Below, in pieces: positions 34,649 to 62,035 of a DNA stretch of 64,000 bases (the stretch's first letter is position 1; each line of letters opens with the position of its first letter). The notes beneath the pieces were generated by a model that was not told the origin of the DNA, ran no database searches, and saw only the letters and a program-made list of their open reading frames with translations. The DNA is from Porphyra umbilicalis. Lineage: Eukaryota > Rhodophyta > Bangiophyceae > Bangiales > Bangiaceae. The position numbers were made by a program, and so were the translations under genes. The DNA lies in contig KV918775.1 in assembly GCA_002049455.2 (NCBI GenBank), forward strand, positions 124,001-188,000, written 5' to 3'.

Positions 34649-36736
34649 CTACTCCTCCTCCTCCTCGTCGCTGCGACGCGAGTCGCGATGGCAAAGATGG
34701 CGAGAGCCAATGCTGGCCCCCGACTCCTGGGATACGCTCCGCGCGCGCGTGTTGCGCGCCGACGGCGGGGCCCCACCCGACGGCCCCCCGTCCGCATGAA
34801 CCCGACGCCCCAGTACGCTCTGAGCATTTAAGCGCGTCGGCACGGCCGCCTCCTCTGGCTGAACAGCCTCGAGGTGCTGAGCAAAGCGCTCGTAGTTGGC
34901 TTCATCATCAACGGCGCGATCCACGGCCTGCCCAATGATTGACAAGGCCGACTCGACCCCGCGACCGTCCGCCCGCTCCACAGCGTGGCGCAAGCCGGTC
35001 ACCGGATCCACCCAGGCATGCGCCACCGCCGACACGGCAGCCCCACGGGGCGCGCGAAAGCGCACGTCGCGCGCGCGCGCCGACCCAAACAAGGAAACCT
35101 CCGCGAAGGAAGATGCGCGCGTCGGCCAAGTAGCCTCGATGGCATGCGGCGGCGATGTCGACCGTGAGCGATCGCGACGCGGCGACCGCGAGCGATCGCG
35201 ACGCGGCGAACGCGGACGGTGATAACCACCACGGTCGCCACCAATGGCATAGACCCATTCCGGGTGGGTCTGTCGACCGCGGCGCCACACCCCCAGGTGG
35301 TTCGGAGGAACCGACGCCACATGGGCAGGCGCGTTCGGGTCAGACGCCCAGTCGAAGTCCACACACGCGTGTCGGAGGCAAAAGCCGTACTCCTTGGTCC
35401 CATCGACCGTCACACGCACGTGTCGCGCCCCACCGGTTTCAATGTCGCGCCGGCTCACGTCCTTGAGGACAACCCCCCACGGGAAAAGGTCCATGGCCCG
35501 TCGCATCTTGCCATACAAGGCGTAGGCCACCTCGCCGTCAGGGGCATCACGCAGTTTGGACGTGTCCAAGACGTCGAAGTGACTAAGCGTCCTCGCGTCC
35601 AGACGGACAAAGAACTTGTCCTCTTGAAGGGTGCGAACCCACAAGGCCATCAGGTCTCAGTAGTACTCGGAGTACACGACCTGCGAAGCAGAGCTGTATT
35701 TGTTTCGCAACGAGTCCGCTAGGTACGAGACCACCACCGGGGTCACCACCCAAGGATCCGTAGCGGGCTCCCAGTCAGGGACCGGCGGAAGCCAACGGGA
35801 CAAGTCAAACGTCCTCGGCGACCGGAGAAACCCGGCTGACCACTCCGTCGGCAGTAGCCCGCGCCCGCCGAAGAACCGCGTGTCCGCCGCTCGACGATGG
35901 TCGGTCGCAAATAACGGCAACCGGAAGGGGTTCGGTAGCTCGCTAATGCGAGGGTTTCTGTCTATATCGACCTCGTCGTTCTCCTCCGCCGCCACCAGCG
36001 TAAGCTGATCCAGTTACTCCGCCAGACCGGCGTCGTGGCGAATCGGCACCGCTACGTCCGTGGCCACCGAGCGCCCGAGGAAAACGACCTTCACCCAGTT
36101 CCGCAACAAGCGGCAACACCAGTTGGCCGCCGCCTCGAAGGTCTCCGTCCCTCCCACGGGGAAAAACAGAGCGTTGGTATGCACCAAGCGGTGGAGCGGG
36201 CGCAACGGCACTTGGTAACGAATTATCTCGTTGCAAAACGACAGGGTCTCGTAGATACGGCGCTGTGGCCCCTGGTTCCCGAAGAACGGGTCTCCATGGA
36301 CGTCGGACACGCGGTCACCAGCACGGCTGGGCGGGCCGGGTTTGGCCAACACGTCGATAAAGCCCGGCAGGGCCTCGTATCGCGCGTGCATACGCCGAGT
36401 GTGCGCACGAGCGCGGTTGCGGACGCAGACGTGGTACAAAATCTGTTCAGCAATGACCGGGATCCCGTCGATAACCTCAATAGGACCAGCGTGCGCGTAG
36501 AATGAGCCGCTAAGCCGGAACTGGCGCAACATCTCCGGGTCGGTGGACCAATCCTTACCGGGTGCTTCGCCCGCAACGGCGTAAGCCACTTGCACCTCGC
36601 TGTGTGCGTTGCCGCCGTCTACCGCAATCGCAGCGGGATCGACCATGGCGAAGTACCCGGGTGTTAACCCTTGTCGCCGCCGCGCTTAGCCGCCGGGCTT
36701 GCTGCCTGCGCCGCCGGGCTTCTCGCCCGCGCCTCC
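34649..36736 (-). pseudogene. Unidentified structural/nucleic-acid-binding-like ORF with Arg/Ser repeats and three in-frame stops
   Basis: One minus-strand frame runs from the Copia LTR edge (36736) to 34649, broken only by in-frame stops at 36686-36688 (TAA), 36014-36016 and just upstream of the ATG at 35650. The pieces are a Gly/Lys/Pro tail, a 210-codon section (ATG 36646, MVDPAAIAVDGGN), a 112-codon section and a 333-codon section. The last contains RPRSPRRDRSRS-type basic repeats at about 35150-35220 and ends in a Glu run. The composition is normal globular protein followed by an RNA-binding-like basic/Ser tail. I recognise no family. A capsid/coat-like or gag-like protein from an integrated virus or unknown retroelement would fit the architecture, but this is inference. 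Same-frame stops with no frameshifts suggest slow decay of one long gene, or recoding. It is cut at its 5' side by the Copia LTR. Confidence 0.45.
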
Positions 36737-37154
36737 TGTTGAAACGCAGTGGGGATAGGGGTTGGGGGACCACGGTGAAGTGGTTGAGTGGCTTGAGCTT
36801 GTGTGTGTGTGTGCGAACGTGCTTTGTTGGTTGTCCTAAGGTTCGCCCGCCTCTCCCAACAGAGAGCACCTCTCAAATAGTCCCCACCGGCCCAAGTGCT
36901 CCCCCCTCTCGCGCCCACACCGACGCCCACGCCCTCGCACCAAATCGAATCACTTACCAAATCAAAAGCCACTAGAGCAAAGCGAAGATCAAATCCGAAA
37001 CATGCCAAAAGTAACGCCCCAAGATGACCCAACACAAATGTGTGCAACTTGACCACGTCTTGCAAATGTACCATGTGGGGTACCATAAGGGTCACCGACC
37101 ATCATCCATCCGCGAACCGCCAGTGGAGTCGGCGACGAGCATCACAGTCCAACA
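36737..37154 (-). repeat. Copia-1 3' LTR
   Basis: 418 bp, TG...CA ends with TGTTG/CAACA. It contains a GT-rich microsatellite (about 36799-36812) that lies in the R/U5 half of the element. Homologous copies are at 38300-38718 and 41702-42119, and a partial one is at 46509-46613. Confidence 0.92.
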
Positions 37155-37189
37155 CTCCTCCTTGCTTGTTGCCGCGGTGGTTCTTGTAT

Positions 37190-40100
37190 TCAGCAAAGCC
37201 CCATGGCCTCGACATGCTTGTCGTGCTTGGTCTTGCCGAGCTCCTTCGTCATCGGGTCCCCCACCATGTCGTCAGTTGCACAATGCTCCAGTGTCACCTT
37301 GTCCGTAGTGATGGCCTCGCGCACGAAGTGGTATTGAATGTCGATGTGCTTAGTGCGCTTGTGTTCGACGGGGTTCTTGGAGAAGTCAATGCACCCGCTG
37401 TAGTCGACCTTGATGTTGAGCGGCCCGCCCGAGATCGCTGTTCGCAGCCCTTGAGATGCCACGCTTTGCACGAGCTTGTTTAGCCAAACAGCTTCCTTGC
37501 TGGCCTCACATAGAGCCATGTACTCAGCTTCCATCGTCGACAGCGCCACCGCCTTTTGCAACTTAGAACCCCAGCTGACGGCTGCTCCGCCAAAGATGAA
37601 GGTGAAGCCCGTCGTAGAACGTCGCGTCTCGTGGTCACCCGCCCAGTCGGCATCACTATAGCCTTGTAGAACGCAGGAAGAGTTCTTGTAGAAGACCAGC
37701 CCCTTGTCCATCGAACCCTTGACGTACCGTAGAACGCGCTTGATCGCCGCCCAATGCTCCTTGCCGTAGCACGAGAAAAACCGACTCAGCTTCCCGATGG
37801 CGAAGGCGAGGTCAGGACGCGTCCCGACCATCAGGTACATTAGACTGCCGACGGCTTCGCGGTAGGGCAGCGCGTCGTCACTCTCGCTGGCCTTGACCAG
37901 CTGCAGGCCCACCTCCAGCGGCGTTCCGATCGGGTTGCACTCCGCCATCCCGAACTTCGCCAGCGCTTGCCCCGCGTACTTGCCCTGCGACAGCTTGAGG
38001 GTTCCCAACGCCTGGTAACGTCTAATCTCTAGCCCGATGATGACCTTCGCCTCGCCCAGGTCCTTCATCTCAAAACGCTTGTGCAGAGCGTCTTTCATCT
38101 TGTAGATCGCCGCCAGGCTTGATGCCACCAAAAGAAGATCGTCGACGTACACCAGGACGATGATGATTTCGCCGTCATCCATGAGGAGGTAGAGGCATGC
38201 ATCCGGGTCAATGTTGTCGAACCCCTGCGACTTGAGGAGGTCGTCGAGCTTGGCGTACCACATCTTGGGGGCTTGGTTCAGCCCATACAGCGCTTGGAGT
38301 GTTGGACTGTGATGCTCGTCGCCGACTCCACTGGCGGTTCGCGGATGGATGATGGTCGGTGACCCTTATTGTACCCCACATGATACATTTGCAAGACGTG
38401 GTCAAGTTGCACACATTTGTGTTGGGTCATCTTGGGGCGTTACTTTTTGGCATGTTTTGGATTTGATCTTCGCTTTGCTCTAGTGGCTTTTGATTTGGTG
38501 AGTGATTCGATTTGGTGCGAGGGCGTGGGCGTCGGTGTGGGCGCGAGAGGGGGGAGCACTTGGGCCGGTGGGGACTATTTGAGAGGTGCTCTCGGTTGTG
38601 AAAGGCGGGCGAACCTTAGGACAACCAACAAAGCACGTTCGCACACACACACACAAGCTCAAGCCACTCAACCACTTCACCGTGGTCCCCCAACCCCTAT
38701 CCCCACTGCGATTCAACATGGAGGAGACGACACACCTTCTCAGGATACGTCGGATCGACATAGCCGTCTGGCTGCTCCATGGAGACCTCCTCGGCAAGGT
38801 CGCCGTTGAGGAATGCCGTCTTGACGTCCATCTGATGTAGCTCCCACCCGTTCGCCGCCGTCATCGCCAGGATGCATCGAATGGTGGTAAACTTGGCCAC
38901 CGGCGCGAACGTCTCGTTTAAGTCGAGCCCCTTGATCTGCAGGTTCCCCATGAAGCACAGGCGCGCCTTGTGCCGCGTCGTGTTGTTCCCGTTCTTGTCA
39001 ACCTCGTTCTTGACCTTGTGAACCCACTTGCTCTTCAGCACGCGTCGACTGGCCGGGCGATCCATCAAGCGCCAAGTCTTGTTCTTGCGGATGGCTTCCA
39101 TCTCCTCGTCCATGGCGATCTTCCACTTAGCCGATTCTTGCCCTTGAACGGCTTGCACGTACGTCGTGGGCGCCTCGTGAGCAACCAGGCTCACCGGGCG
39201 CCAGTACTCGACAGGTGGTCGCCGCGCTCTGCCGCTCCGACGCAGCGTGTATTGGGAGCCGCCACTACCTTGATTGTCGTACGCGGACTTGTCAGATCCA
39301 TCGTCTTGCTTGTCATCCTTGTCGTCATTGTCAGCATCTACGTCTTCGCCGTCGCTTGCAGAACGCAGGCCCGTCTCGACTTCAACAACTTCGTCTTCGG
39401 GAAGCTCCTCCACAACTTCTGCGACCTCGCTAACGTTCGTCTCGGCGAACACAACGCTTGGTGCCTTGACGACCTTGCCGTCGTCAAGGATGACCTTGTA
39501 CGCCTTGCTGCCGTCGGGATACCCTAAGAGGACGCCCTTCGCCGCCTTGTCGCCAAACTTGCCGTCGATGTGACTCTTGTGCAGCACCACCCAGCATGTC
39601 GACCCAAACACCCGCATGTGGCGTACGTTGGGCTTATTCCCGGTCCACAGCTCAAAAGGCGTCTTGCCGACGGGAAGCGCCCGGCTGGTGACGCGGTTCT
39701 TGATGTACACCGCCGTCTTGATGGCATCCGCCCAAAGATCCTGATCGACGTCCTTGTGCCGCATCATGGTGCGAGCCATCTCCACGAGAACTCGGTTGAG
39801 CCGCTCAGAAACTCCGTTCTGCTGCGGCTTGTCGGGCACCTTGGTCTGGTGCGTCGTGCCGTTCTCATCGTGAAGAGCCTTGAATGCATTCGACACGTAC
39901 TCGCCGCCATTGTCGGATCGCAGGATCTTGATCTTGGTTCCCGTGTGCAGCTGGGCCTTAGTCAGCCACTTCTTTTACTCAGAGAGCAGATCGCTCTTCT
40001 TCTGCAGAAAGACCACGTCGGTCCAGCGGGAGAAGTCGTCGGTGAAGGTGCCGAAGTCGAGCGCACCGCCACGCGACGGCTCCGACATCGGCCCGCCCAG

Positions 40101-41540
40101 GTCCGAGTGCACGAGCTGCAGGCGCTTGGTCGCTCGACCTCCACCTGAACTAGGCATAGGCGTCATAGCCGCCTTCCCATACACGCACGGCTCGCAGACG
40201 TCCTTGACCACAATGGAAGAGCACTTGAGTCCATTTATGTCCTTGTTCTTGATCATCCGCTTAACGCCAGCCACGTTGACGTGCCCAAGGCGCTCATGCC
40301 AAAGCTGAAGGGAGGCCACCGCAGCAATATCCAACAGAGGGGCCATGTCCAGGTGGTAGAGCCCACTCTTCCGCGTGCCGCACGCAGCGACCTTGTCGCT
40401 AATCTTAATGATCGTCTGACCGCCCTTGAATGACACTTCCGCACCACGCTCCTCCATCATGCCGATCGACATGACGTTAAAGCCCATAGTAGAAACATGG
40501 AGTACCTTTTCCAACTTGATCTTGCGCGTCTTGCCGTGAACGATGACATTGAGCACGACGGTTCCGACGCCCGCCGTGGCTACGGACCCCTTTTCACCCA
40601 TGGTGACACTCCGTCCCGTGGTCGTATGGTGGTCGTCGAAGCACCCGCGCATCCAGCACATGTGTGCAGACGCCGCAGAGTCGACAAGCCACGACTTGGA
40701 GGTGTCATCGGTGTCAGCTGCATTGCCCACCAGACAGATGGCGTCGTCGCTGTCGCTACCATTGTCAGCCGCAGTCGCGGCCACCTTGTCCTGTCTCTGC
40801 TTCTTGGCCTTGAGCTCTGGGCAATCGTGAGAGATATGCCCAAATGTATGGCAGTAGTAACACTCGATCTTGGAGAGGTCACCACGGCGGCCTTGACCTC
40901 GATAGTTGGCGCCGACGAGTGCCATGTCGCCCATGCGCTTCGTCGCCGGTGACTTGTCCGCCTGCCGCCGCTCCTCCTGAAGCAAGCGGCTCTTGACAAA
41001 GTCGAGGCTTAGCTCGTCCTCGCCCTTGGCGTCGAGAGCCACCAGCAGGTTCTCGTACTTGGACGTCAGCCCGTTGAGGACGCTCATGGCAACGTCCATC
41101 TCCGTCACCTCGCCGCCCATGGCCTTGAGGTTCTCGCCGAGGTTGCGCACGCGGTTGATGTAGCCCAGCATGCCCTCGCCGACGGTCATTTCGACGGTGT
41201 AGAACTCGCGTCGCGCCTTCATCTTGTTCATCAAACTCTTGCGCTGGAAGACACCTTGCAGCGTCGACCACATTTCCGCCGTCGTCTTGCAGCCCGCCAC
41301 GTGCTCGAGCTGCTCAGATCCAAGGGTGAGCCCGATGATGGCGCTCGCCTTCGTGTCTCGACGCTTCCACACCGCCAACTCGCGGGCACCCGCGTCCGTC
41401 GGCTTGCCGTCTTCGTCAAGCATATCGTCCAGGTCGCGCAGCGCGAGGACCATCTTAAAGCGCTGACGCCACTCGTGGAAGTTCGTCTCCGTCAACTTGT
41501 CGATCTTGATGCCGCCCATGCCGGCAGCGCCTCCGTCCAT
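37190..41540 (-). pseudogene. Copia-1 gag-pol polyprotein (one stop, split by a solo LTR)
   Basis: Start ATG at 41540 (MDGGAAGMGGIKIDKL). Gag with UBN2-type sequence, CCHC knuckle CYYCHTFGHISHDC, protease WLVDSAASAHM, integrase HHCC (LWHERLGH ... CEPC), DDE residues in LVHSDLGGP and FTDDFSRW, and VSERLNR. A TAA at 39975-39977 interrupts the integrase; the same frame continues (KKWLTKAQL) to VDVKTAFL-type reverse transcriptase sequence (QMDVKTAFLNGDL). At 38718 the solo LTR intrudes. Beyond it the protein resumes with LYGLNQAPKMW, VLVYVDDLLLVAS and RNase H (YSDADWAGD, STMEAEYMAL), ending near 37190. The frame offset on the two sides equals the insert plus duplication (424 bp), so excision would restore it. 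Only one nonsense codon remains otherwise, so the copy is fairly young. Confidence 0.92.
38300..38718 (+). mobile_element. Solo LTR of the Copia-1 family nested in Copia-1
   Basis: 419 bp, TGTTG...CAACA, in the opposite orientation to its host element. Flanked by the 5-bp duplication TGGAG (38295-38299 and 38719-38723). It arose by LTR-LTR recombination of a later insertion. Confidence 0.93.
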
Positions 41541-41687
41541 GATGTCTTCTTGTCGTAGCGCCCGACCTTGCCGAGCCGTGCGCCTTGACCGTCACGTCCT
41601 TGAACCACCTTGACCTCGTCTTCTTCGCACTTGCCGCGACCGCCGCGACACCAGATGGCACACCTTGCACTTGTCACAGCCCCGGCT

Positions 41688-41701
41688 CTGGGCCCATAAC
41701 C
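41688..41701 (-). promoter_or_regulatory. Copia-1 primer-binding site, complementary to initiator tRNA-Met anticodon arm
   Basis: Minus strand GGTTATGGGCCCAG starts directly at the LTR border. It is the complement of the anticodon stem-loop segment CTGGGCCCATAACC of initiator tRNA-Met, not of a tRNA 3' end. Copia of Drosophila primes from a cleaved tRNAiMet half in this way. Confidence 0.8.
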
Positions 41702-42119
41702 TGTTGAATCGCAGTGGGGATAGGGGTTGGGGGACCACGGTGAAGTGGTTGAGTGGCTTGAGCTTGTGTGTGTGTGTGCGAACGTGCTTTGTTGGTTGTT
41801 CTAAGGATCGCCCGCCTTTCACAACCGAGAGCACCTCTCAAATAGTCCCCACCGGCCCAAGTGCTCCCCCCTCTCGCGCCCACACCGACGCCCACGCCCT
41901 CGCACCAAATCGAATCACTCACCAAATCAAAAGCCACTAGAGCAAAGCGAAGATCAAATCCAAAACATGCCAAAAGTAACGCCCCAAGATGACCCAACAC
42001 AAATGTGTGCAACTTGACCACGTCTTGCAAATGTACCATGTGGGGTACAATAAGGGTCACCGACCATCATCCATCCGCGAACCGCCAGTGGAGTCGGCGA
42101 CGAGCATCACCGTCCAACA
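41702..42119 (-). repeat. Copia-1 5' LTR
   Basis: 418 bp, TGTTG...CAACA; the 5' LTR by its position next to the primer-binding site. Confidence 0.92.
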
Positions 42120-42270
42120 GTTGCCTTGTCGCACCAACAACCACTCCGCATCATTTCCTCGTCTCAAGAGTTGATAGTGCAATTTGGGTACACAACTACG
42201 CGTATGATCCGGCGACGGCAGAGGCGCCGCCAAACTGACCGCCCACCACAAGACATAACCCCGCTGCCGA
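42120..42270. other. Unassigned flank of Copia-1
   Basis: No match to the sequence on the other side of Copia-1. A minus-strand frame is open but unconvincing. Confidence 0.3.
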
Positions 42271-42380
42271 CGACCCGATGATCGACTCTTTAACCCAGTG
42301 ATCGACACTTTAACCCAGTGATCGACACTTTACCGCAGTGATCGACACTTTATCCCTGTGATCGTCACTTTAACCGATGG
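42271..42380. repeat. 20-bp tandem repeat array (5 units)
   Basis: Exact 20-bp period: units at 42281, 42301, 42321, 42341 and 42361, consensus ATCGACACTTTAACCCAGTG, with partial sequence before. Iterated sites like this occur near the ends of DNA transposons as transposase-binding sites. Its role here is unknown; it lies 1.3 kb upstream of the Fanzor TATA box. Confidence 0.85.
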
Positions 42381-43662
42381 TACCGAACTTAAAGCGGGGT
42401 GAAGACCACTTTGAAAGTGTATTTAAGACTGCGCGGGCGGCTGCTTTTCAATTGGCGCGACTCGACGCAACTACCGATGCGACGGCAGCAACCGCGACGG
42501 TGTCGCCTGGCCAAAATGCGAGTCGGCGCTCTCGCACTTGTGCCCGGCGGTGGTGGTGGTGGACACGCGCGCCGCGCGCTGCGTGTCGGTGGGTGTCGGT
42601 GGGTGTCGGTGGGTGTCGGTGTGTGTCGGTGGGTGTCGGCGTGGGGCCCGTCCGCCACCGAGCGCCCGAATGCCTGTGTTTGGTCGCTCCCGAGACGGCC
42701 GCCCCGTACTCTCGGATGCCTCAATGTCCTCATTGTCCCCATTGTCCTCCTTGTCCTCCTTGTCGTTTTTCTTCAATGTCCTCATTGTCCTCATTGTCTG
42801 TTTCCTCATTGTCCACCTTGTCCTGGTATTCCTCATCGTCCTAATTGTCTTCGCCCCCCCCCCCCTCACCAGGTATGGTGGGGGTCTCCAGTGCAGCAGC
42901 GCCACCCAGGCGACCGACACCAGCTGTGTTGGCCCAAATTCTCACCCCACACGACCGACCACCCCAACCGCCACGACGACTCGTGCGGCCGGGTTTCATC
43001 CATGTCGGCACGTTCAACACCAGGAAGGAGGGGGTGTTTCGGCAAGGTGGTCGCACGCCCCGGTGGGATGGACGTGGGGTTGTCGCAGCGCTGTGGCTGG
43101 GCCCATCTGTCGGACCATTGGGACCTGTATGGCGGGCATGTGCTCTATGCGGCGACGCCGCCGCACCGCAGCGGTCGGCAAGGCGTCGTCCAGGCGTTTC
43201 CATGATGGTCAACGGTGGCGTTCAACGCGTCACGCCCCTTCTGTCCGTGACACGCCTGCACGTATGACGTCAAACCTTTCCACACCCCATCCCCGCGAAG
43301 GGGGGGGGGGGGGACGGGAGGGGGGACTGGCGGTCCCCGTTTGTCCGTACATTGTCTGCTACCACCGTCGGGTGCCGACCCACCGGGTGCCGACCCGCCG
43401 ACCCACCGCCCAGCTTCTCTCACGGCGGCCGGTGCTGACATGGCGGCCTGTGGTTGCACCCACCTGCACGCGCCGGCGGCGGTGTGGCGCGTGGAGTAGA
43501 GGAACGAGGAGAGCGCGGCGGGTGTGCCTGCACGCAAGAGTGCGTTTGTGTCGTGCGCTCGGCCCGGAACCAGCTTCTAGACCATCTCTCAGGGTGGTGT
43601 GGTCCCGCCCGTGTCGTGTGGTGGTCCGCGGCAAGCCATCCACCGCTACTCGTGCCGTTTCC
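42381..43662. other. Region between tandem array and Fanzor promoter
   Basis: Two simple arrays: (GTGTCGGTGG GT)n at about 42586-42640 and (TGTCCTCAT)n-like at about 42724-42845. Between 42900 and 43270 there are protein-like fragments in changing frames (RPGFIHVGTFNTRKEG; HLSDHWDLYGGHVLYA) with no known family. A 14-base G run is at 43300-43313. This may be the left arm of the Fanzor-carrying element. Confidence 0.35.
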
Positions 43663-43670
43663 TATAAAAG
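43663..43670 (+). promoter_or_regulatory. TATA box of the Fanzor locus
   Basis: TATAAAAG lies 31 bp upstream of the first ATGs region (ATG at 43701) in otherwise GC-rich sequence. Confidence 0.55.
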
Positions 43671-43700
43671 GAGTGATGGGTGCTGGCACCGTACACAACC

Positions 43701-44905
43701 ATGCGCCCGCAGGCCTGGCCGCCGTGCCGCCGCGTGCCGCAACTCCCAGTGGCGGTGCGGGCGGAAAGGGCGCGCTACCGCCTTGAGGACGTCAAGCTTC
43801 CCCCCGCCCGTGTGCACTCGTCCCCCGTCATGGACGATCAGTCGTCGACCGACGAGGAGGAGGCGCCCGGCACGTCGACAGCGCTTCGGGCGCGTGGCAG
43901 CGGCCACTGTCCCACGACGCGGCGCCCCACGCCGACCACCACTTTGGCTACGGCGCGGCTCCGCAAGGCGACGGCGAGCGGCAAGGACAATGGCGACATT
44001 GGCGGGGGTGTTGCTGGGCGTGTGGGCACAGATCTCGACGACGACGACGAGGTCACGCGCCTCGGTACGGCAGGCGAGGACGCGGCAATCCAGGGGGTGG
44101 CCACCTCGAAAGCGCGCGACAAAGTGCGGCGTCTGCCGTGCGGTCGGCGACGGTGGAGGTTGCCGCCGCCGTCGCCGCGTGTGAGTCGGCCGGTGACGCG
44201 GGACCGGTGGCGAGCTTGCGTGCCGCGAGTTCCCTCCTGGCCAGGCTCCTCGCATGAAAGCCGGTGCACGCGCGGGGCACTGGGTCGCCCGCGTCGGCGG
44301 CGATGGACGACGCCACGTCGGCATCTACTGCCGTGCTGCAAGCCGTCGCCGCGGTGACGGTGCCGCTGGCCCGGCCACCCGCACCAGACGACGGTGACGA
44401 GGGCGCCGCCGCGCCCCCCACCGATGCCGACACAAGAGCCGACGCCTCCGCCCGGGTGGCGTGCAGGCGCCTCTGCGCACGAGCGCGTCACGCGGCGGGC
44501 AGCGTCTTGTCGGCGGTCAAGGGCCTGATCCCCATGGTGCAGCCCGACGCGGGCGTCCACGCGGGCGACGATGATGGTGGCGACGCCGGTGGCGACGCTG
44601 GCGCCACGGCGCGCGGCGGCGGCGGCACGCGTGGCCGCCAGCGTCGATGCGGCGGCTGCGGGGCGACGGGGCACAATGTGAAAACGTGTCCGGCTGACGC
44701 TGCCACCAAGGCGGCGCATGCGGCGCGTGGCGAGGCGGCCAAGGTTGCCAAGGACGTCAAGGGCTGCAGCGGCAACAGCAAGTGCAGTGCGTGCCACGCG
44801 CGTGGCCACACCCGGGCCAGCGCTGTGTGCCCGCTGCGAGCCGTCACTCACGGCTGGTCGGGCCACGATGAGGACCGCGGGCGCGACTTGGGGTGGGGGA
44901 GGTGA
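43701..44905 (+). pseudogene. N-terminal part of Fanzor locus: acidic leader and two CCHC zinc knuckles, frame-broken
   Basis: From the ATG at 43701 (or 43830, MDDQSSTDEEE) frame 3 is coding-like to about 44110. Frame 2 then takes over (SAASAVRSATVEVAAAVAA), with TGA at 44255-44257, and continues (MDDATSASTAVLQAVAAV) to 44905. It includes CGGCGATGHNVKTC (44648-44689) and CSACHARGHTRASAVC (about 44786-44830), both CxxCxxxGHx4-6C zinc knuckles as in Gag and some nucleic-acid-binding proteins. The frame changes again around 44890-45000, next to a G-rich stretch, into the Fanzor core. Continuity of promoter, strand and spacing suggests one original gene. Alternatively this is a separate upstream gene of the same element. 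At least two indels and one nonsense codon mark it as decayed. Confidence 0.45.
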
Positions 44906-46266
44906 CGACGACCGTTTCCGTGTCGGTCGAACGGTTTTTTGGTGTCTGGCGACGGCTGGCGCCAGAACGGCCGGCAAACTCTTTGCCCCCGACGGGGCGC
45001 CGGCCTAAGACGTCGAGCCGTCGCGCGCCGACGGGGACCGCCGCCGCTGTCGCAAACGCTGCCGCGGGGGCGGCCTCGCTGACCGAGCTTGCCACGGCAC
45101 AGACAAAGCATCTGCGGCTCGTGTCCATTGTCATGGACGGCACGTTGCGGTACCTGCTCGAGCGCGTCGACGGTGGTGGCGGCGGGCAGGGTGCGGGCGG
45201 GGGCGGTGGCGGTGGCGGCGGCCACCTCCGGGGCACGCTGGACGAGTTTATCGCGGCCGTGCCGGCGTCGCTGACAAGCAACCACGGGCTTGCCTGGAAG
45301 CAGGTCGCTTCGACCGTCTCTTGTCGCGGTGTCCACGCGTTTGGCGGCGCCCCCCGGTGGGCGTGCTTCGATTGCTCGGTTAGAGGCGCACACGTCAAGC
45401 CCCGCGGGGACATCAAGGCCGCCGCCCAAGGCGACGGCGACTACTCTGCCTTTGTGGTGGCGTCGGCGGCGGTGGCAGACGCGGTGACCGAGCCAAGCCA
45501 GTTGCCGTGTAGCACACCCATGGCGGCTCCGGGCGACACGTCTGGTTGGCCCACCGTGGCGACGGCGTTTGAAAACAACTATGTGACGCATGTCACGTCG
45601 GCGGTCAAATTCATTACCAAGTGCATCGTCCTCGACGTCTACCCGCAGGCCCCCGGCGGACTCGACGGACAGCGCCGCGCGGCACTGATTGCGGCCCTCG
45701 TTGCCGGCCTGCAAGCTGCCGACGGCACGCGCCCGCCGTCGTTCAAGTGGCCGGCGGGCAAAGTGTCTGCATCGAATGGGGCTGCCATGGCGGCCGGGGC
45801 CACGCTGGCGTACGACACTGTGCTCGTCTACGCCGGTGGTGACGGTCGGCGGCGCTGTCTTCTCCAGCTCGACACGTCGACCCTGCGACAGCGGCCGCTG
45901 CACGTCTACCCGCTGCTCCACTATGCCCATCTGTTGTGCATCCGTGCCGGCGTCGAGGCGGCCGACACGTCACCCGGCCGAGCCGCCACGTGCACCGCGT
46001 ACGCACGCATCGGTGGAGCGCTGCTCCGCCGGCGCCTGGCGTCCGCCGGGGTGTCGCTGCCAGCGTCGACAACCAACGGGCTGTTCATCCAAACGCTGCT
46101 CCGCCGCGCGCGCATTGTCGGCGCCAAGACGGTGGTCGGGCCCTTCATCGTGTCGGACGGTGTCGGCGTGCACTGTACGATACGACACCCCGCCAGCGCC
46201 GCGTCGACGGCGGCCGCTCGGTGGGCGCGTCGTAAGGCTGCAAGTGACGGTCGTGGTGGGAGGGGG

Positions 46267-46613
46267 TGTTGGGATTCGAAAATTGTACCACTCAGCTACA
46301 GCCACAATACCGGTGTGAATGGTCCTGAGGTGTTCAAACTTATAGTCCAACTTTCCTCCTAACTTCACAGGACCTCAAGCCGCCAGGTCTCTCTCACGAA
46401 TCCAATCCCCAGACTCCGGCGATTTCAAGTCGCCCTCAGGTGAGATTTGAACCTGCGACCTCCTGCAAAGTCAACCAGCTTTAGCTGGAATTTCCTGGGC
46501 CCATAACCTGTTGAAACGCAGTGGGGATAGGGGATGGGGGACCACGATGAAGTGGTTGAGTGGCTTGAGTTTGTGTGTATGTGTGCTGAGGAGTTCAAAC
46601 TTATAGTCCAACA
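46267..46613 (-). mobile_element. TRIM-like mini LTR element inserted in Fanzor
   Basis: Minus-strand 347-bp element with TGTTG...CAACA outer ends, flanked by GGGGG on both sides (46262-46266 and 46614-46618). Right (5') LTR 46509-46613 is 105 bp and shares its U5-side half with Copia-1 LTRs. Left (3') LTR, about 46267-46351, shares only the U3 start (GTTGGACTATAAGTTTGAAC). A primer-binding site like that of Copia-1 lies at 46495-46508, and a purine tract next to the left LTR. The interior is about 150 bp and non-coding, with a B-box-like GGTTCAAATCT on the minus strand (about 46440-46455). Confidence 0.8.
46495..46508 (-). promoter_or_regulatory. TRIM primer-binding site (tRNAiMet anticodon arm complement)
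   Basis: Minus strand GGTTATGGGCCCAG, identical to the Copia-1 and Copia-2 sites, abutting the 105-bp LTR. Confidence 0.75.
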
Positions 46614-49069
46614 GGGGGGGGGGCACCGAGACGGTGAGCGTGCGGACGCAGCTGGACCGCATGGCGTTTTCGCCGGACGTCTTCAAGAAGCTGGCGTTTG
46701 TTGGATGGGACCCGGGCGTCGCGTCAATTTTCGCTGCCTACTGCCCCGGGGCGGTGCCGTTTGTTCAGTCACCTGCGCCGCACCTGCACGCGTATCGGGC
46801 GTACCGGGCGCTGCGGATTGCGGGCGACGCGCTCGCGCGGGCGGCCATGCCCGCGACCGCCGCCGCCGAGTGCCTCGTGCGGCGGGGTGGTCGCGTTTTT
46901 CCGACCGTCGACGCGCTACGTGCAACGGTGGCCGAGGCTGCGCGCGCGGCCAAGGCCACCGCGGCAGGCCTACCCGTCGGCGGCGGTGACGCTGTCTGCC
47001 GGACGACCAAAAAGCGCGGCCGTGGCGCGCTCGGCGCGTCGACCGGAGTGGAGGCATCTCCCCCAGAGCCGACTCGTACAGATCTGGTGGGCCCACCGGC
47101 GGCCACGCCCGCGGCAGCAGCGTCTTTTCCGCCTTTGGAGCACGCACCGACGGTGCCGAAAGACGCGGTGGACCCCCCCCCCCCCAAGCGCCGGCGATAC
47201 AAGCAGCCGGCCTTTGGCGACGAGTGTCTGACCCCGATTCAATGGCAAGAGGTGGCCCGCAAGCGGGGGACGAGCGCCCCCGGCCGCCGTCGGGCCATCC
47301 TCACGCGCATGCGCGCCACCGCGCACGCCACTATCAATGGCGGCAACGTCCAACCGTGGCACCTGTCCAACCACGTGTGTGTGTGGATGGATGAGGCGGC
47401 CCTGTTCAAAGAGGCGGCGCACGCGACGGCGGCTGTCAAGGCCAAGACAGATGCGGCGGCGCACGCAGAGGCGGCATGGCGTGCAGTGTCGGTCGACAGT
47501 GGGGCACACGCCGCGTGCGTCGTGCAGCGCGAGGCACAGGACCAGTGCCAGACGGCGGCGACATTGCAAACGGCAGAGCGAGTGGCGGCTGCGGCGGCCG
47601 CTGCTGCACCCGCTGCGCCCCCGCATCTCGGCGCGCTCGGCACGCCGCTGCCGTCGGCCGACCGCTTGCGCGTGTTGTGTGCCGCACTCGAACGTGCGGC
47701 CGCCGCCGGGGGGCGCCGGCGCGTGCGCGTCCCGCCCACTGGTGCGACGCTGGTCGTCTCCCAAGGCGCGTACCGCGAGGCGACGGGCGCCGCTATGACG
47801 AGGCGCGCCGAGGCGGCAGCGGTGGCGGCGTGGGCGGCGGCACAACCAGGCGTGCCGCGCGAGTCACTGACGGCCGGCTGTTCGCTCAAGGTCGTGACGT
47901 GGGGCGCGTGGCTGGTTGCGGCCACTGCGCGCATCGCCCGCACCTACACAGACGCCTAGCAGGAGGCGTACGGGGCGGCCGCGACGCACGGTCAACGCAA
48001 GGCGCGGCTACACGGCCTCATCCAGCGCAACCGGTACGTGGCGGTGCCGGCGCGCCGCTTGACGGACGGTTTGCTGCGGCGCACCGTGAACGGTACCAAG
48101 GCTGTCCTGGCCATTGACCGGTGCAGGCCCCGCGCCGGCAGCGTCGCCTTCGTGCGGCGCATGGCCAAACACTTTCACCTCGTGTACGTTGACGAGCACA
48201 ATACGAGACAGACGTGCGCCGAGTGCGGCCATGGCTTGTGCAACACATACGTGTCGCCCGCCTCGCCACTCGACCTGACGCCTCTCAAGGCGGCAACCAG
48301 TTACGCGCAGCGCGCGTCGGCGCCGGCGGCCAAGCGCGCCTCCCCCCTCCGCGACGGCCGGCGCAGGCGACGGGGTGTGACGACCGGCAGTCGGTCGGGT
48401 CCACGCGACGGTGCGGCTGCCCAGCGCGCCAAGGGGCACGCAGAGGCGGTGCGGACAAAGGTGTTGCAGGTGATTGCGGCTCACGGAAAGTGGGCGTTTG
48501 TGACCGACCCGCTGGCGCTCTGGGGGGTCAAGCTGTGAACCAACGTTGCGTGTCTGGCGACGTACGTCGGGCGAGACACCAACGCGGCGCGCAACATGTC
48601 CAATATTGCCAACCGGAGAATGCAGGGCCGGAGCGTCTACCTCCACATCCGGGGGTACACCGTGTCACGCGCGCCCCCCCAGGACGACCCTGTCCAGGCA
48701 GTGCGGCACGCGGCTGCGATCGATGCAGGTACCTACGAAGCCGGCTCCGGGTGGACGCGGTGTTCACCCACGTCGAGGGAGCCCTGGCGCCGACCTGTCT
48801 TCACCGACCCGCCGGTCGCGGAGGCGGGGATGGCCCCCACGGTGGTGCCAGTGGCGGTGCCAACAGTGCGGGTAGAGGCACTGGGTGTGGTGGCAGACGG
48901 TGCGCACGACGCAGCTGCTGCGTTGGCAAGCGGTGACCTGGCGACGATTAACGTCCGCCAGATGGCAACTGCCAGCCCCGCGCCAGCCGTGGGACGCAGC
49001 CACACGTCTTCGAGCCGCCTTGAGCGGGTAATCGTAGAATGTTCACTAGGGTCATCTCGTGGGGTGTGA

Positions 49070-49141
49070 CGCTGTTGCTTTTGCTTCTCATTGGGCCCGG
49101 ACCTTCTGTCCGCTAACTACGAAATGATGCCGAGGCCCCAC
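49070..49141. other. 72-bp gap between Fanzor and LINE-A 3' ends
   Basis: Convergent ends. Contains the small hairpin CGGAC-CTTCT-GTCCG near 49098. The LINE 3' end and the Fanzor element boundary must both lie here or overlap. Confidence 0.4.
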
Positions 49142-49313
49142 TCAACCGGAAACTCGGTCCAAAGCAGTTGGGGCGTCCAAAGTGGCCCGCGCCCTCGCAT
49201 CACACCTCAAAAAACCCTCACAAAGCATGCGCGCGTGATAGCGCCAAATGATAGCCGACGCGTCCGTAAGCAGCGACGCGAGCGCGCGCAAGCGCTCCGG
49301 ACCGCCGACGGCG

Positions 49314-49787
49314 TGTTGAGCATGGCTCCGCAGCTCCACATGGCGAGGTGCATTGGCAGCGACAAGTCCGGCCTTATTTCCGGGTAAGTAGCAATGCATT
49401 GCATGCAAGTCCAAATGTATTTCGGGACAAGTCCGAAGTATGCTGGTACTTTGTGACACCTACTGTCATGTATTTGTGGTGCCTATTTTGACATGTACTT
49501 GTTTGTGTTTGTGTTGTTGGGCGACGCATTAGGGGCTTAGCTCCGGGAGATTAGCGGGTTGAGCTCGGCGGGATGGTCGGGATTTGTGGGGTGGTTAGAG
49601 GCTCTGCCCTCTGGGTGTGAGCTCCCCCTCGGGAGGTGCGCCGTGCGCTCTGTGACGGCGTGAGAGTAAGGATGTTCCTGAAGGGCTCTGGGAGCGGGTC
49701 GTCTCCGGGTTAAGAGGCTGCTGGCCTCGTGCCGCAGACCCTCCCCGAGTAAACCAACGCATCCACCCAACTACCGCCCACTTCGCA
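49314..49787 (+). repeat. Copia-2 5' LTR
   Basis: 474 bp, TG...CA, followed immediately by the primer-binding site. Confidence 0.95.
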
Positions 49788-49801
49788 GGTTATGGGCCCA
49801 G
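49788..49801 (+). promoter_or_regulatory. Copia-2 primer-binding site (tRNAiMet anticodon arm complement)
   Basis: GGTTATGGGCCCAG directly follows the LTR, complementary to the initiator tRNA-Met anticodon arm. Same site as Copia-1 although the LTRs are unrelated. Confidence 0.8.
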
Positions 49802-49944
49802 CTGTCGATGGTGGTAACCGTCGTCTTCCCTGCGGTCGCTGGCGAGACGACGTTGCTGGGGTCGCGGTGTGTTCCGGCGTCGGGCGGGCGTTCTCTGCTC
49901 CCTACGTCGTTAGTGCGGCGCTGTGCGGCGCCGAGGTCGTCAAC

Positions 49945-52900: not shown

Positions 52901-54524
52901 CGCGGCTGCGTCGGGCTGAGACTTGCACAAACCGCCTGCAAACGAGAAGGAGGCGCGCGCTCGTCCTGACTGGCCGCTGTGGAACCAGGCCATTAAGGAG
53001 GAGGTGGCGGCACACAAGAACCTTGGCACCTGGTCCAAGACCAAGGGTAACAACAAGAAGCAAAAGGCCATCAAGACGCGATTCGTGTTCGACATCAAGC
53101 AGGACGCGGAGGGCAATCTGACGCGCTACAAGGCTCGACTCGTGGCCCAAGGGTTCAACCAGGTGCCCGGACGAGACTTTGACGAGACGTGGGCTCCGGT
53201 ACCCAACGCGGCCACGACACGTGCTCTCTTTGCTGGGTCGGCAGCCATGGGCTGGGAGATTCACCATGTCGACGTCAAGACAGCCTTCCTCAACGCCAAG
53301 ATGGACAAGGAGATGTACATCAAACTCCCCGACGGTGTCGAACCCGAGGGGCTGGAGGAGATGTGTCGGCTAAATCTGGCACTCTACGGGACAAAGCAGG
53401 CGGGGCGGCTGTGGGGCATCAAGCTCGACAAAGAGCTCAAGGAGATGGGGGCGGTCCGGTCCAAGGTGGACCCGTGCCTCTATGAGTGGCACCACCCCGT
53501 GCACGGGTGCATCTTTATCCTCGTGTACGTCGACGACCTTATCGCGGCGGGCGAGCAGCTGGCTGGGGTCGAGGCCGTCAAGCACTCCGTGTCTGCCAAG
53601 TTTGAGGTGCGCGACATGGGGGAGGTCAAGGACTTCATTGGCATGAAGGTCATGCGCAACCGGGCGGCCAAGACTCTGACGTTGAGCAACCCGGAGCATA
53701 CCGCGACGCTGCTGGAGGCGTTCGGGATGGACAAGGCGACGCCAAACAAGACGCCGATGGCGTCGGGGGTCAAGCTGACCAAGACAGGGGAGGGCCTGCT
53801 GCCGGAGGGCAACCGTTATGCCGAGTTGGTTGGCTCCCTCCTCTACCTGTCTACCACGACTAGGCCAGACATCGCCTTTGCCGTAGGGGTGCTGTCGCGC
53901 TTCATGTCCTGCCCTGAGGAGGACCACATGCGCGCGGCAAAGGGGGTTTTGCGCTACCTGCGCGGGACGACTCGCCTGGGGGTGGTCTACGGCGGCAGCG
54001 AGCCGCTGCAAGGGTTTGTCGACGCCGACTGGGCCGGCGACATCGACGGTCGTCGGTCGACAACCGGTTTCGTCTTTACCTGCAAGGGCGGGCCAATTGC
54101 GTGGGCAAGCAAGCGCCAGTCGACCGTGGCCACCTCGACGGCCGAGGCGGAGTACGTGGCCGCCGCGATGGCGACCAAGGAGGCGCTGTGGCTACGCAAG
54201 CTGCTGTCGGCGCTGGGCGTCGACGGCGGAGCCGTGCCAATGGGGGAGGACAAACAGTCCTGCCTGGCGCTTGTCAACAACCCGGAAGCGACGGGGCGGA
54301 ATAAGCACGTGGACGTGGCCTTCCACATGGTGCGAGACTATCAGGCCCGCGGGGAGGTGGCATTCTACTTCCTCCCGAGCGCGGAGATGCCGGCGGACGG
54401 GCTCACTAAGCCGCTGCCGTTGCCGGCGTTTATGGCTTTCCGGAACGCCATTGGGACTGGCGGGGACCTGGCCGAGGTGGTGCGCGACGCTGGCCTCGGC
54501 GGCCCCCCGTTGCGGAAGTGCTGA
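49945..54524 (+). pseudogene. Copia-2 gag-pol (three in-frame stops plus a MITE)
   Basis: I prefer the ATG at 49945 (MSDRGRFGGPRF); the frame is open from 49792. Gag ends with CCHC knuckle CFYCNKKGHMQRDC (about 50623-50670), then protease WVRDSGATNHM. The MITE at 51114-51512 splits ACY|ILSDGDAV. After it come TAA at 51567-51569, the integrase (LWHRRFNHLG, CVPCVDGK, LVHADIGGP, ALEDSTGF, AERVNRT), TGA at 52506-52508, a variable acidic spacer, TGA at 52917-52919, then an intact reverse transcriptase (HVDVKTAFLNAKM, ILVYVDDLIAAG) and RNase H (FVDADWAGD, STAEAEYVAA), ending at 54524. All three stops are in the same frame with no indels. CGA-to-TGA decay explains at least one plausibly. Confidence 0.93.
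51114..51512. mobile_element. Tc1/mariner-type MITE (399 bp) in Copia-2
   Basis: Inverted ends TTGCTGATCCCCGAATTTTG at the left and its complement at the right; the repeats extend beyond 25 bp. Flanked by TA on both sides (51112-51113, 51513-51514). Excision with one TA restores the Copia frame exactly (TGC TAC ATC). No coding capacity. Confidence 0.9.
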
Positions 54525-55186: not shown

Positions 55187-55660
55187 TGTTGAGCATGGCT
55201 CCGCAGCTCCACATGGCGAGGTGCATTGGCAGCGACAAGTCCGGCCGTAGTTCCGGGTAAGTAGCAATGCATTGCATGCAAGTCCATGTGTATTTCGGGA
55301 CAAGTCCGAAGTATGCTGGGACTTTGTGACACCTACTGTCAGGTATTTGTGGTGTCTATTTTGACATGCACTTGTTTGTATTTGTGTTGTTGGGCGACCC
55401 ATTAGGGGCTTAGCTCCGGGAGATCAGCGGGTTGAGCTCGGCGGGATGGTCGGGATTTATGGGGTGGTTAGAGGCTCTGCCCTCTGGGTGGGAGCTCCCC
55501 CTCGGCAGGTGCGCCGTGCGCTCTGTGACGGCGTGAGAGTCGGCATGTTCCTGGAGGGCGCTGGGAGCGGGTCGTCTGGGGGTTAAGAGGCTGCTGGCCT
55601 CGTGCCGCAGACCCGCCCCGAGTAAACCAACGCATCCACCCAACTACCGCTCACTTCACA
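55187..55660 (+). repeat. Copia-2 3' LTR
   Basis: 474 bp, colinear with the 5' LTR; followed by the duplicated CGGCG. Confidence 0.95.
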
Positions 55661-58600
55661 CGGCGGTCCGCGAAAGAAGCCCGCGGACGCGGGGCCCACG
55701 CGGCCAAACACCTCCCACACCAGGGGGTGAAGACAGCGAGCGGGTCGGCGGCGGGCAGGCGCGGCGCGTACTTGCGCACCTTGCGCGCCTCGCGCACCAC
55801 CGCCGCCACGGCCACGGAAGGCCGGGCGACCACGTCCGCGACGACCTTGTCGGTGAAGACCGACGCGACGGCAACGTCGCCCCAGACCACCACCCCAGTC
55901 TGCGCGCGCACCGCGCGCACTTACGGGCGGAGCGTCCCGGTGGCAGCACTGAAAAGTGCCGACGACGCCTCCACCACGACGGCCGACCACTGCGGGTGCG
56001 CGCGCAGCGCGTCCGCCGTTCGCGCCACCAGCGTGTTGTGGCGAAACGTTGCGTTGGTGATGCACGAGGGGGCGCTTCACGCCGCCAGGAAGTGGACGCC
56101 GTACGCGTCCACCGCAGCACCGCACGCGCACCGGCGCGCCACCGCTGTCCGCGCGACAGGGGGCACGCAAAGCCAGAGGCGGGTGGCCATCCGCATGGAC
56201 CGCCCGCCGATGGCGCCAGCAGGGCGGCCGGGCGCCGGCAGTGCAGAAAGCCACAGGCCAGTGCCCGCCCCGTGGCAGGCTGCGAGCCGCGCGAGGTCCG
56301 CGTTATCCGGCAAGGAGGCCCGCAGCCGCTCCAGCGCGGCAGGGTGCACGGGCCCCGCCAGGTCCCGCTGGGACGGGGCCCGCGCCCCCCCGAGCAGCCG
56401 CGCCCATCCCAGCTGAGTACCCGCCGCGACGCGGAGTAGGCCGGACGCCGCGATATGAGCGTCGGCAGGGGGGGCAAGGAGGTCGGGGGCGGTTGGCGGA
56501 GGTGCGGGCGCCGCGTCGCACGCGGCGTTCAGGGCCGTGACGGCCGCCAGAAGGCCCGGGAGGATGGGAGGGCGACGCCCCGACGGCATCGCGTCGGCCG
56601 CCGGTAGAGCGCCAGCGGCACCAGCAGCAGCCGCGACGCCCGCCCGAGGGGCGCCAAGCCACGCCCGGGTGTCAACTTGGGCGCCGGCAGGCGCCGCAGG
56701 ACCAACCGGGTCGGTGTCCCGCAGGGCATCAGCCAGGTCGGCCAACGCCGGCGCCGCCGCCCTGTGGCAGTGCACGGCGGCGTCCGCCCAGGACGCCACG
56801 ACGGTCGCCGCCGCCACGCGCGAACGATCGTTGACGCCCAGCCCCCCATGCGGACGGGCAGCGCGGCGCGCGCGAGCAACGCCGCGCGCACCTAAGCGCC
56901 GTCCGTCGTGTCGCACAAGAGGGAGAGCACCGTCCGCTGAACGTCCGCGTCGACGGCGACGGCCAACGTGGCCCCCGCGTCGGGGGGGGGAGACCGCAGC
57001 GCGTACGTAGCGCGCGGCCCGGCGCACAGGCAGAGGAGCAGCAGCTTGGTCTGCAGCTCCTCCTCCGGCAGGGCGACAATCGCCGCCACCCCCGCTGCGT
57101 GCTCGGCCGCCATGGCCGCGACGCGCGCCGCCACGAAATCGCGTTGACCTACAGGGATAGAAAATTGCTCCACTCCCTCCGACCGCCACTGGGAGGTCAG
57201 GTCGGGCGGCGCCGTTGGTGCGCCCGGCGACCACTCCACGCACTTGGTGGGCGACAGCTCCGAGTCGACGAGCGCCCCCACCCGCGCCGCCGACGCCATC
57301 ACCGCACAGAGCCCAGCCACGGGCCCCACCGCGCGCACGTCATCGTGAAATGTGTCGATGGCGTGCGCGGGGTGGAGGCGCGACAGACGCGAAAGCACGA
57401 GCATCAGCGCGGCGGCGTGCAGAAAGGGCCCCAGGGGGTCCCCCTGCTGCGTCCCTCGCTCGACGGTGAGCACCCGTCGAGCGGGGGGGGGGGCACCCAC
57501 TGGGGCGGGTGGGCGTCGTCGTCATCGTCGACCAGGCCGGGGGGGTCCTCGTCGCCCACCCCACCGTCGCCGCCGTCGCCCGCCCCGCCCCGGCCGTCGA
57601 GCAGCCGTAAGTCGCCGCAACGTGCGGCGACAAGGAGGGGAACCCGCGGTCAATGAATGCGCGCGCTGCCACGCGGGAGATGAGGTTGAGCGCGTTCTTG
57701 CATTCCAGCAGCAGAACCCCCTCCTCCGGCGCCGCCTCCAGGCGGGCCTCCAACGCGTGCAAAAGGCGCTCGCACGCGTTGGGAACGCCGATGCCCAGCT
57801 GCAGCGGCGCCATGAGAGCGGCCGCCGACGCGCGCCGGTCGCGCGCCAGAGATTCGCATCCAGCTTGCGCAGTGTCTCCGGCATTCCGATCGGGCGGAGC
57901 CTGCGCACCCCGTCGGCGTCGGGCGCCCCCGGCTTCACCAGCAGCAGCAGCTCCGCGCCCGCCAGCGCGTGGCTCGCCACCGCTGGCACCACCGACGTCG
58001 CGGCGTCGCTGGCCAATAGCCGCACCTCCGCTACCAGTGCGTCGCGGCCGTCCTCTGCCAGCGCGCACAGGTGCTCCATCCGGAAGCCGGACGGTCCCGG
58101 GGCGAAGACGCGCGCGGCAGACCAGATGGTCGCCACCACCGTCGCCGCAAACAAGCCCAGCGGGGCACCCGCATCCACGCCGTGCGCGGCGGCGGCGTCC
58201 AGCTCAGGGCCGAAGTCAGCCTCGACTGACTCGGTCGTCGCCAGCCCCGGCGTGGCGTGCGGGAAGAGCCGCTGCGCCGCCTGCCATACGGCGCTCGTGT
58301 GGGGCGCCACCGGCGCCCCGTGCAGGGTGCGCGCCGCGGCGCTTAGGCGGCCGCTCCACACTTGGCATAGAGCCCACCGCTGCACACGCGTCACGCGCAG
58401 CCGGGCGCTCGTCGGGCGGACGGAGACGCCCGGGCCAACCCGCGGGGGGGATAGGGATGCAGCCGGCGAATCGGGCGGGGGGCGGGGGGGGGGGGGGGTG
58501 GATGTGGAGGAGGCGACGCGGGTGTTACCACGGCCACAGACGATGTGGCCGTGCTCGCCGACTCGGGCGGCTCGCGCCACACACTTATGTTGCGGTCACG

Positions 58601-60720: not shown

Positions 60721-60728
60721 CCCCCCCC

Positions 60729-61980: not shown

Positions 61981-62035
61981 GGGGGGGGGGGGGGGGGGGG
62001 TGAGGTCCAGGGGTTGTCATGGATACATCCTGTAG

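What the first reader, a model, noticed from the sequence alone, without database searches (positions are those of the whole stretch)
43663..49069. Fanzor (eukaryotic TnpB-type RNA-guided nuclease) locus
Seen: RuvC-I (GWDPG), a VDEHNT...TCAECGH segment and RDTNAARN (RuvC-III) in one reading frame across 46.6-48.6 kb. These follow an N-terminal half with Fanzor-like blocks and a TATA box 1.2 kb further upstream. Known: this motif set defines the TnpB/Fanzor family, whose members are guided by an RNA encoded at or beside the gene's 3' end. Inference: intact relatives, each with its own guide RNA, probably exist elsewhere in this genome.
Basis: partly seen in the sequence, partly recalled or inferred. 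Interest (0 to 1): 0.95.

Follow-up and report, generated by a model that had tools for sequence, protein, structure and literature searches.

The report
Giant broken Fanzor-like transposon gene
This stretch holds a dead copy of an unusually large gene for a probable RNA-guided DNA-cutting enzyme carried by a jumping element, and the same genome holds dozens of sibling copies, at least two of them with the whole reading frame open.

Summary
In detail: GWDPG, VDEHNT..TCAECGH and GRDTNAARN lie in one frame (46607-49069), but with two in-frame stops, an insert at 46267-46613 and a frame break upstream, so this copy is a pseudogene. The genome has at least 56 places of the family. In two of 19 longer-fetched loci the whole frame is open (1,921 and 1,660 codons): two CCHC knuckles, an N-terminal half, then D1124 / E1622 / D1749 around a split zinc finger. 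Known Fanzor1 proteins are mostly 600-700 aa (PMC11423790). A sibling copy (P0001) passes the PF07282 cut-off (33.2 against 26.3 bits). Otherwise the lineage is isolated: two searches of 5.8 billion proteins returned 11 relatives, three of them at least 99% identical to copies in this genome. In siblings the stop codon lies 43-50 nt from a sharp element end with hairpins plus CTRR|T, followed by 31 different host sequences: where a TnpB/Fanzor guide would lie, and also a Helitron-like 3' end. An antisense LINE-like element sits at that same point in the window and other copies. RNA guidance, the RuvC fold (both models failed) and the 5' end remain unshown.

The parts
43663..43669 (+). TATA box (TATAAAA)
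   Evidence: Sequence; TATAAAA lies upstream of the frame also in siblings L046, L048, L055, L057 and L040 (L049 reads TAAAAAA)
42120..43540 (+). Upstream part of the element, homologous to siblings L050 and L056; the true 5' end was not reached
44258..44905 (+). Two CCHC zinc knuckles of the same protein (out of frame with the rest in this copy)
   Evidence: zf-CCHC_6 30.1 bits, cut-off 22; continuous with the nuclease half in L055 and L056 and in proteins P0004 and P0005
44872..46266 (+). N-terminal half; position corresponds to WED/REC of Fanzors (inferred, no profile match)
   Evidence: open frame; homologous in siblings
46267..46613 (.). 347-bp insert (TRIM-like) absent from the siblings aligned across it
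   Evidence: sibling alignments jump from about 46266 to about 46614; 46495-46586 is 95% identical to 41688-41779
46614..47959 (+). RuvC-I segment (GWDPG, Asp at 46709-46711) and alanine-rich linker, ending at a TAG stop
47960..48538 (+). VDEH-NT-QTCAECGH (Glu 48194-48196, first zinc pair), ending at a TGA stop at the second zinc pair
   Evidence: PF07282 weak in the window (18.4 bits), over cut-off in some siblings
48539..49069 (+). GRDTNAARN (RuvC-III Asp 48575-48577) and C-terminal tail to the stop codon
49070..49313 (-). Tail of an antisense LINE-like element inserted at the element's 3' terminus
   Evidence: same junction place in L010, L020, L032, L033, L040, L042, L045, L047, L051, L052
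49314..55659 (+). Copia LTR retrotransposon splitting the LINE-like element
   Evidence: L042 and L047 jump from 49313 to 55660; Retrotran_gag_2 and Pol_BBD domains
55660..57771 (-). Continuation of the LINE-like element (extends further; outer limit not determined)
   Evidence: L047 and L042 homology; reverse-transcriptase-like residues read by eye only, no such Pfam match on this strand
36735..42119 (.). LTR retrotransposon (LTRs of about 420 bp) abutting the element upstream; also abuts siblings L041 and L042

Best explanation
The window holds one dead copy of a multicopy transposon whose 3'-terminal gene encodes a very large Fanzor-like protein (about 1.6-1.8 thousand aa counted from early Met codons of the two open siblings): two CCHC knuckles, an N-terminal half, and a probable RuvC-type D-E-D nuclease with a split zinc finger. 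In working copies it most likely acts like TnpB/Fanzor: the transcript across the gene's 3' end and the terminal hairpins would be the scaffold, the host sequence next to the element end would be the guide, and the protein would cut matching DNA, such as the emptied donor site, helping the element persist. Shown: motifs, copy number, two open frames, purifying selection on the protein between subfamilies, sharp hairpin-bearing 3' ends with different flanks. Inferred: RuvC fold, RNA guidance, DNA cutting, benefit to the element, and mobilisation in trans by a rolling-circle (Helitron-type) transposase.
For: Motif order and catalytic residues: D1124 in the 8 aligned sequences that cover it, E1622 and D1749 in 10 of 10. 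DPG and a Glu directly before the zinc (TNB) domain are Fanzor hallmarks (PMC10711439 and PMC11423790, passages). PF07282 passed by P0001 and by an L055 piece. The only two PDB sequences found with profile A4 at E<=10 are both Cas12f, aligned exactly at YVDxxxTSQTCxxCGH, though at E 0.81-0.82. dN/dS 0.27-0.39 in four of five segments, L055 v L056. A strong terminal hairpin exists in both lineages although its sequence is replaced. 31 distinct flanks, 50% GC against 70% in the element. Fanzor1 genes are already known in Helitrons (PMC3627910).
Against: PDB E-values near 0.8 are chance level here: unrelated chains scored 0.87 and 1, and profile A1 found nothing. No NCBIfam match; whole proteins score below the PF07282 cut-off. 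D-to-TS spacing is 500, not 125-275; the second zinc pair is CX4C with about 100 residues between the pairs. Both AlphaFold models are useless (mean pLDDT 33.4 and 32.1). RNA folding of five 3' ends of 119-120 nt is not clearly better than shuffles in three (z -0.8, -1.3, -1.1; also -1.0 for a 50-nt end) and better in two (-2.4, -3.1); the long folds of the main lineage use another pairing than the terminal hairpin, and the small first hairpin appears in one of three older-lineage folds. Low synonymous change near the 3' end is better explained by recombination than by an RNA. No Helitron_like_N match on any contig with a Fanzor piece.
Confidence: 0.64

Rival explanations
1. A TnpB/Fanzor-derived protein that no longer uses an RNA guide: the knuckle-bearing N-terminal half took over DNA or RNA binding, and the RuvC part serves transposition itself.
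For: Large size, fused CCHC knuckles, unusual motif spacing, no recognisable WED/REC.
Against: E1622 and D1749 are kept in 10 of 10 aligned sequences, D1124 in 8 of 8 that cover it, three of four zinc cysteines in 10 of 10 and the fourth in 9; the stop codon sits 43-50 nt from the element end, as a 3' guide arrangement would need.
Confidence: 0.2
2. The terminal hairpins are only a rolling-circle (Helitron) terminator and have no part in a guide RNA; the Fanzor-like gene is passenger cargo.
For: Terminal hairpin, CTGG or CTAG end followed by T (65 of 66 pattern matches; the pattern itself contained the T and allowed 3 mismatches); Helitron_like_N genes exist in this genome (28 matches).
Against: Helitron membership itself is incomplete: no RepHel near, 5' end not seen. 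One structure could serve both roles.
Confidence: 0.3
3. The motif matches are a chance product of long open frames in about 70% GC DNA.
For: Many other frames of this GC-rich region are also open; PF07282 matches only about 22-27 of 60 positions; the database relatives are partly the same genome.
Against: Purifying selection in this frame between subfamilies, same frame at at least 56 places, curated cut-off passed by some copies.
Confidence: 0.04

Closest known systems
Fanzor1 proteins (SpuFz1, GtFz1, PpFz1)
   Same: DPG aspartate, glutamate next to the zinc (TNB) domain, RD near the end, gene inside a repeated element.
   Different: About 1.6-1.8 thousand aa instead of mostly 600-700; two CCHC knuckles; about 500 residues between D and E; about 100-aa insert in the zinc finger (PpFz1 has a RuvC insert of about 100 aa, PMC11423790 passage); no detectable sequence similarity outside the zinc motif.
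Helitron2 Fanzor1 elements CRe-1, -2, -3 of Chlamydomonas (PMC3627910)
   Same: Fanzor gene in an element with a hairpin 3' end, well conserved 3' ends, non-autonomous as far as seen.
   Different: CTRR|T end as described for Helitron1; one uninterrupted frame in the open copies (CRe genes have 5-10 exons); 5' end and 5' hairpin not seen here; no TSD in the 3 copies tested.
Cas12f / TnpB (PF07282 Cas12f1-like_TNB)
   Same: YVD-x3-TSQTC-x2-CGH motif (E about 0.8), PF07282 cut-off passed by some copies.
   Different: About three times the length of the Cas12f chains (506-508 aa); OrfB_IS605 (PF01385) not found in this genome (0 matches).
Target-specific non-LTR retrotransposons (Utopia, PMC4640811, search listing and start of abstract only; Tx1 recalled)
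   Same: Recurrent insertion at one point of a repeated target.
   Different: The target here is the 3' terminus of a Fanzor-like transposon.

Membership tests
TnpB/Cas12f TNB superfamily (PF07282) | Score above the curated cut-off (26.3 bits) | tested here: met
   Met by P0001 33.2 and L055 576-aa piece 26.7 and 32 genome frames, 7 of them only with neighbours. Not met by window piece 18.4, L055 whole 19.7, L056 18.7, L042 21.3, P0002 25.2, L039 25.0
Fanzor (motif of PMC3627910) | Order D ... [TS][TS]xx-C4 zinc finger ... RD | tested here: met
   D1124, TSQTC 1625-1629, C1629/C1632/C1736/C1741, R1748-D1749 in L055
Fanzor (motif of PMC3627910) | Spacing D-X(125,275)-[TS][TS] | tested here: not met
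   500 residues in L055
Fanzor (motif of PMC3627910) | Spacing zinc finger-X(5,50)-RD | tested here: met
   6 residues between C1741 and R1748
Fanzor (PMC10711439, PMC11423790 passages) | DPG after RuvC-I and Glu just before the TNB domain | tested here: met
   GWDPG and VDEHNTSQTC; by sequence only, no structure
Fanzor | WED-REC-WED-RuvC fold | tested here: inconclusive
   mean pLDDT 33.4 and 32.1
Fanzor | RNA-guided DNA cutting with TAM | not testable with these tools
   Needs small-RNA and biochemical data
Helitron | 3' hairpin and CTRR end followed by T | tested here: met
   exception L041 (CTGAG)
Helitron | 5' TC end and insertion between A and T | not tested
   5' ends lie beyond the fetched stretches
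Helitron | RepHel gene in the element, or a partner element with the same 3' end | tested here: not met
   28 Helitron_like_N matches, none on a contig with a Fanzor piece; nearest copy of this 3' end on a RepHel contig is 111 kb away, on C26. Non-autonomous Helitrons need no RepHel of their own

The most novel reading that the evidence does not exclude
A new lineage of giant, zinc-knuckle-fused RNA-guided nucleases whose guide scaffold ends in the transposon's own rolling-circle terminator hairpin, so every new insertion picks up a new guide from its host flank; and a retrotransposon that repeatedly homes to exactly this guide-encoding end.
Probability: 0.3. Interest if true: 0.85.

Novelty: new variant of a known kind. 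Interest (0 to 1): 0.6.

Why it matters
Fanzors are studied as compact genome-editing enzymes. A lineage about two and a half times the usual size, with fused CCHC knuckles and a large RuvC insert, would widen what the architecture tolerates and would show how a eukaryotic transposon links its own terminus to a guide. With at least 56 places and 31 distinct flanks read in one genome, the 'flank is the guide' rule becomes testable in one small-RNA experiment.

Tried and rejected
Rejected: an RNA signature from low synonymous change at the gene's 3' end. Subfamilies A and B become alike from about codon 1560 at both synonymous and non-synonymous sites and some copies (L011, L016) are A/B mosaics, so recombination explains it. 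A+B against C also shows few fixed changes in both classes.

Rejected as evidence: pairing of ACCAG with the terminal CTGGT (ACTAG with CTAGT in the older lineage; 28 and 3 of 31 rows by the five letters scored, with single-copy departures next to them such as L028, L044 and L046). In the older lineage the same stretch can pair with a nearer CTAGTG, and there are only two lineages.

P0001, P0005 and P0011 are 99.8, 99.6 and 99.0% identical to L002, L001 and L049 (P0005 over 251 aa); the other eight are 81-97% identical to fetched loci over 177-454 aa, so they may come from the same or a near genome. Confidence was lowered from 0.66 to 0.64 for this.

Led nowhere: PDB searches with the window piece, the whole protein, profile A1; NCBIfam; IMG/VR contigs (4 stretches matched a pattern, none a relative); phage records (no match at E<=0.01); Rfam and tRNA scans of the window (none); AlphaFold twice; target-site duplications at copies with a 5' break (none of 3 beyond a chance 5-mer; the same 5' junction sequence in L030 and L051, and in L045 and L047, points to other elements inserted there); 5' end (homology runs past the fetched stretches). 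Host species not identified.

Counting notes. One search used 56 of the 64 rows (8 secondary fragments dropped); these searches give lower bounds, and L011 and L048 share one flank, so some places may be duplicated segments. Of the 56, 38 have the main 3' end within 1.5 kb, 9 a LINE-like tail, 9 neither by these patterns (three of those nine, L039, L044 and L049, carry the older end; L042 and L052 a diverged tail). One search found 35 ends, 31 distinct; its regular expression required the T. One search used 36 of 45 rows (L011, L016, L026, L030, L040, L041, L052, L053 and window left out as mosaic, partial or divergent). One search left out L024, L025 and L029, which lie within the same places as L057, L055 and L056, and L001-L009. 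One search scored 40 of 111 candidates. Searches scored only the 7,996 and 7,982 candidates sharing most words.
Full report
What is there. In the window the three catalytic blocks lie in one frame, 46607-49069. The frame is broken by TAG at 47957-47959 and TGA at 48536-48538; a 347-bp insert sits at 46267-46613; and the knuckle segment 44258-44905 is out of frame with the rest. The copy is dead. An LTR retrotransposon (36735-42119) abuts it upstream, a LINE-like tail starts at about 49070, and a copia element (49314-55659) splits that.

The family. A search of the same 84-Mb genome gave 64 matches, at least 56 separate places. Of 19 loci fetched with more flank (L039-L057), two have the whole frame open: L055 (1,921 codons) and L056 (1,660); L057 is open for 1,458 with a frame break near the knuckles. 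These 19 are not a random sample: 16 were weaker matches (L053 holds only 3.2 kb, L054 is a distant match) and 3 were chosen for long open frames. The other loci were seen over about 3-3.6 kb only. Eleven database proteins were found at E<=1 in two searches of 5.8 billion sequences, each scoring about 8,000 candidates. Three of them are at least 99% identical to copies in this genome, so no independent species is shown to carry the gene. Knuckles running on into GWDPG are seen in L055, L056, P0004 and P0005.

Is it coding? Yes. Between L055 and L056 dN/dS is 0.35, 0.28, 0.39, 0.27 and 0.68 over five consecutive segments; pairs of older, decayed copies run higher, up to 0.94. Other frames are also open in this GC-rich DNA, so this test matters.

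Is it a Fanzor? By order of motifs, DPG, the Glu directly before the zinc domain, and PF07282 in some copies, it belongs to the TnpB/Fanzor/Cas12f superfamily. The Cas12f matches fall on the right motif but at E about 0.8, where unrelated chains also appear. By the spacing of the 2013 Fanzor motif it does not fit (500 residues against 125-275). I therefore call it Fanzor-like, a divergent lineage, and do not assign it to Fanzor1 or Fanzor2. A structural test failed: both AlphaFold models had mean pLDDT near 32-33.

The 3' end. In 38 of 56 places the main 3' end lies within 1.5 kb of the Fanzor piece. There the stop codon is followed after 43 nt by the end CTGG|T; in the older lineage (L039, L044, L049) after about 50 nt by CTAG|T; beyond it 31 distinct sites have their own host sequence. 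The pattern of the main end occurs 66 times in the genome and 0 times as its backward control. A terminal hairpin can form in both lineages with replaced sequence; the 50-nt main end folds into two hairpins, but the 120-nt main-lineage folds prefer another pairing, and the small first hairpin appears in one of three older-lineage folds. This geometry equals that of TnpB and Fanzor guide RNAs, where the flank is the guide, and also that of a Helitron 3' terminus. The two readings do not exclude each other. Folding energies give mixed support, and the synonymous-site test is confounded by recombination.

A retrotransposon at the same point. A 55-nt tail pattern of a LINE-like element occurs 18 times. 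Nine tails lie 587-618 bp downstream of a Fanzor piece, and eight are followed at 8.11-8.17 kb by the Fanzor 3' end; the union is 14 of 18, and on C55 and C288 two such elements stand in tandem. Junctions differ slightly between copies and lineages, which suggests repeated insertion at one target. Four tails are unlinked (C13, C129, one on C283, C387); the one on C13 lies about 10 kb from a Helitron_like_N match. The far junctions were inferred from coordinates, not read. The LINE identity rests on residues read by eye; Pfam did not confirm it on that strand.

Mobilisation. Helitron_like_N genes occur 28 times in the genome, on no contig that carries a Fanzor piece. If the element is a Helitron it is non-autonomous as far as seen. 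Its 5' end was not reached.

Literature. Search 'Fanzor' gave 82 papers (40 listed); with 'Helitron' 4; with 'amoeba' 2; with 'zinc knuckle' 0. I read passages and section 5 of PMC3627910 and of PMC10432273, and passages of PMC10711439 and PMC11423790. In what I read there is no knuckle-fused or 1,600-aa Fanzor; supplements were not read, and the Sci. Adv. 2023 survey is not held. Helitron-borne Fanzor1 genes were reported in 2013 (PMC3627910).

Noticed in passing
window 49070-49313 and 55660-57771; genome places: LINE-like element repeatedly inserted, antisense, at the 3' terminus of the Fanzor-like element (14 of 18 tails linked to it), twice in tandem.
   Followed up: partly
window 46267-46613: TRIM-like insert: 30-bp repeats 46322-46351 / 46583-46612, and 92 bp shared with 41688-41779, which overlaps the start of the LTR element's right LTR. 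Its reverse strand seems to have tRNA-like A and B boxes (by eye; ARAGORN finds no tRNA).
   Followed up: partly
window 27066-29933: Long open frame with a lipoxygenase domain (PF00305, 112 bits).
   Followed up: no
siblings, codons 1560-1921 of the L055 numbering: The 3' part of the gene is 93-98% identical between L055 and L056, which are 76-88% identical just upstream; L011 and L016 look like mosaics.
   Followed up: yes
genome places: 23 of 66 matches to the 3' end were not assigned to a Fanzor piece; some follow a LINE-like element (C144, C283, C504), others may be 5'-truncated or other elements sharing the end.
   Followed up: partly
L050:480-691 and places: A 212-bp segment with 20-bp tandem repeats recurs about 4-12 kb further upstream, same orientation, in several copies; the whole element may be much longer than what was fetched.
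   Followed up: no
window 60491-62035 (+): A second reverse-transcriptase frame (RVT_1 20.3 bits, below cut-off) in opposite orientation to the LINE-like element.
   Followed up: no
window 62378-64000 (+): Open frame that reads like a hAT transposase by eye; no Pfam match at E<=0.001.
   Followed up: no
P0001, P0005, P0011: Unnamed database proteins at least 99% identical to loci of this genome: the same or a very near organism is in public JGI/ENA data.
   Followed up: partly
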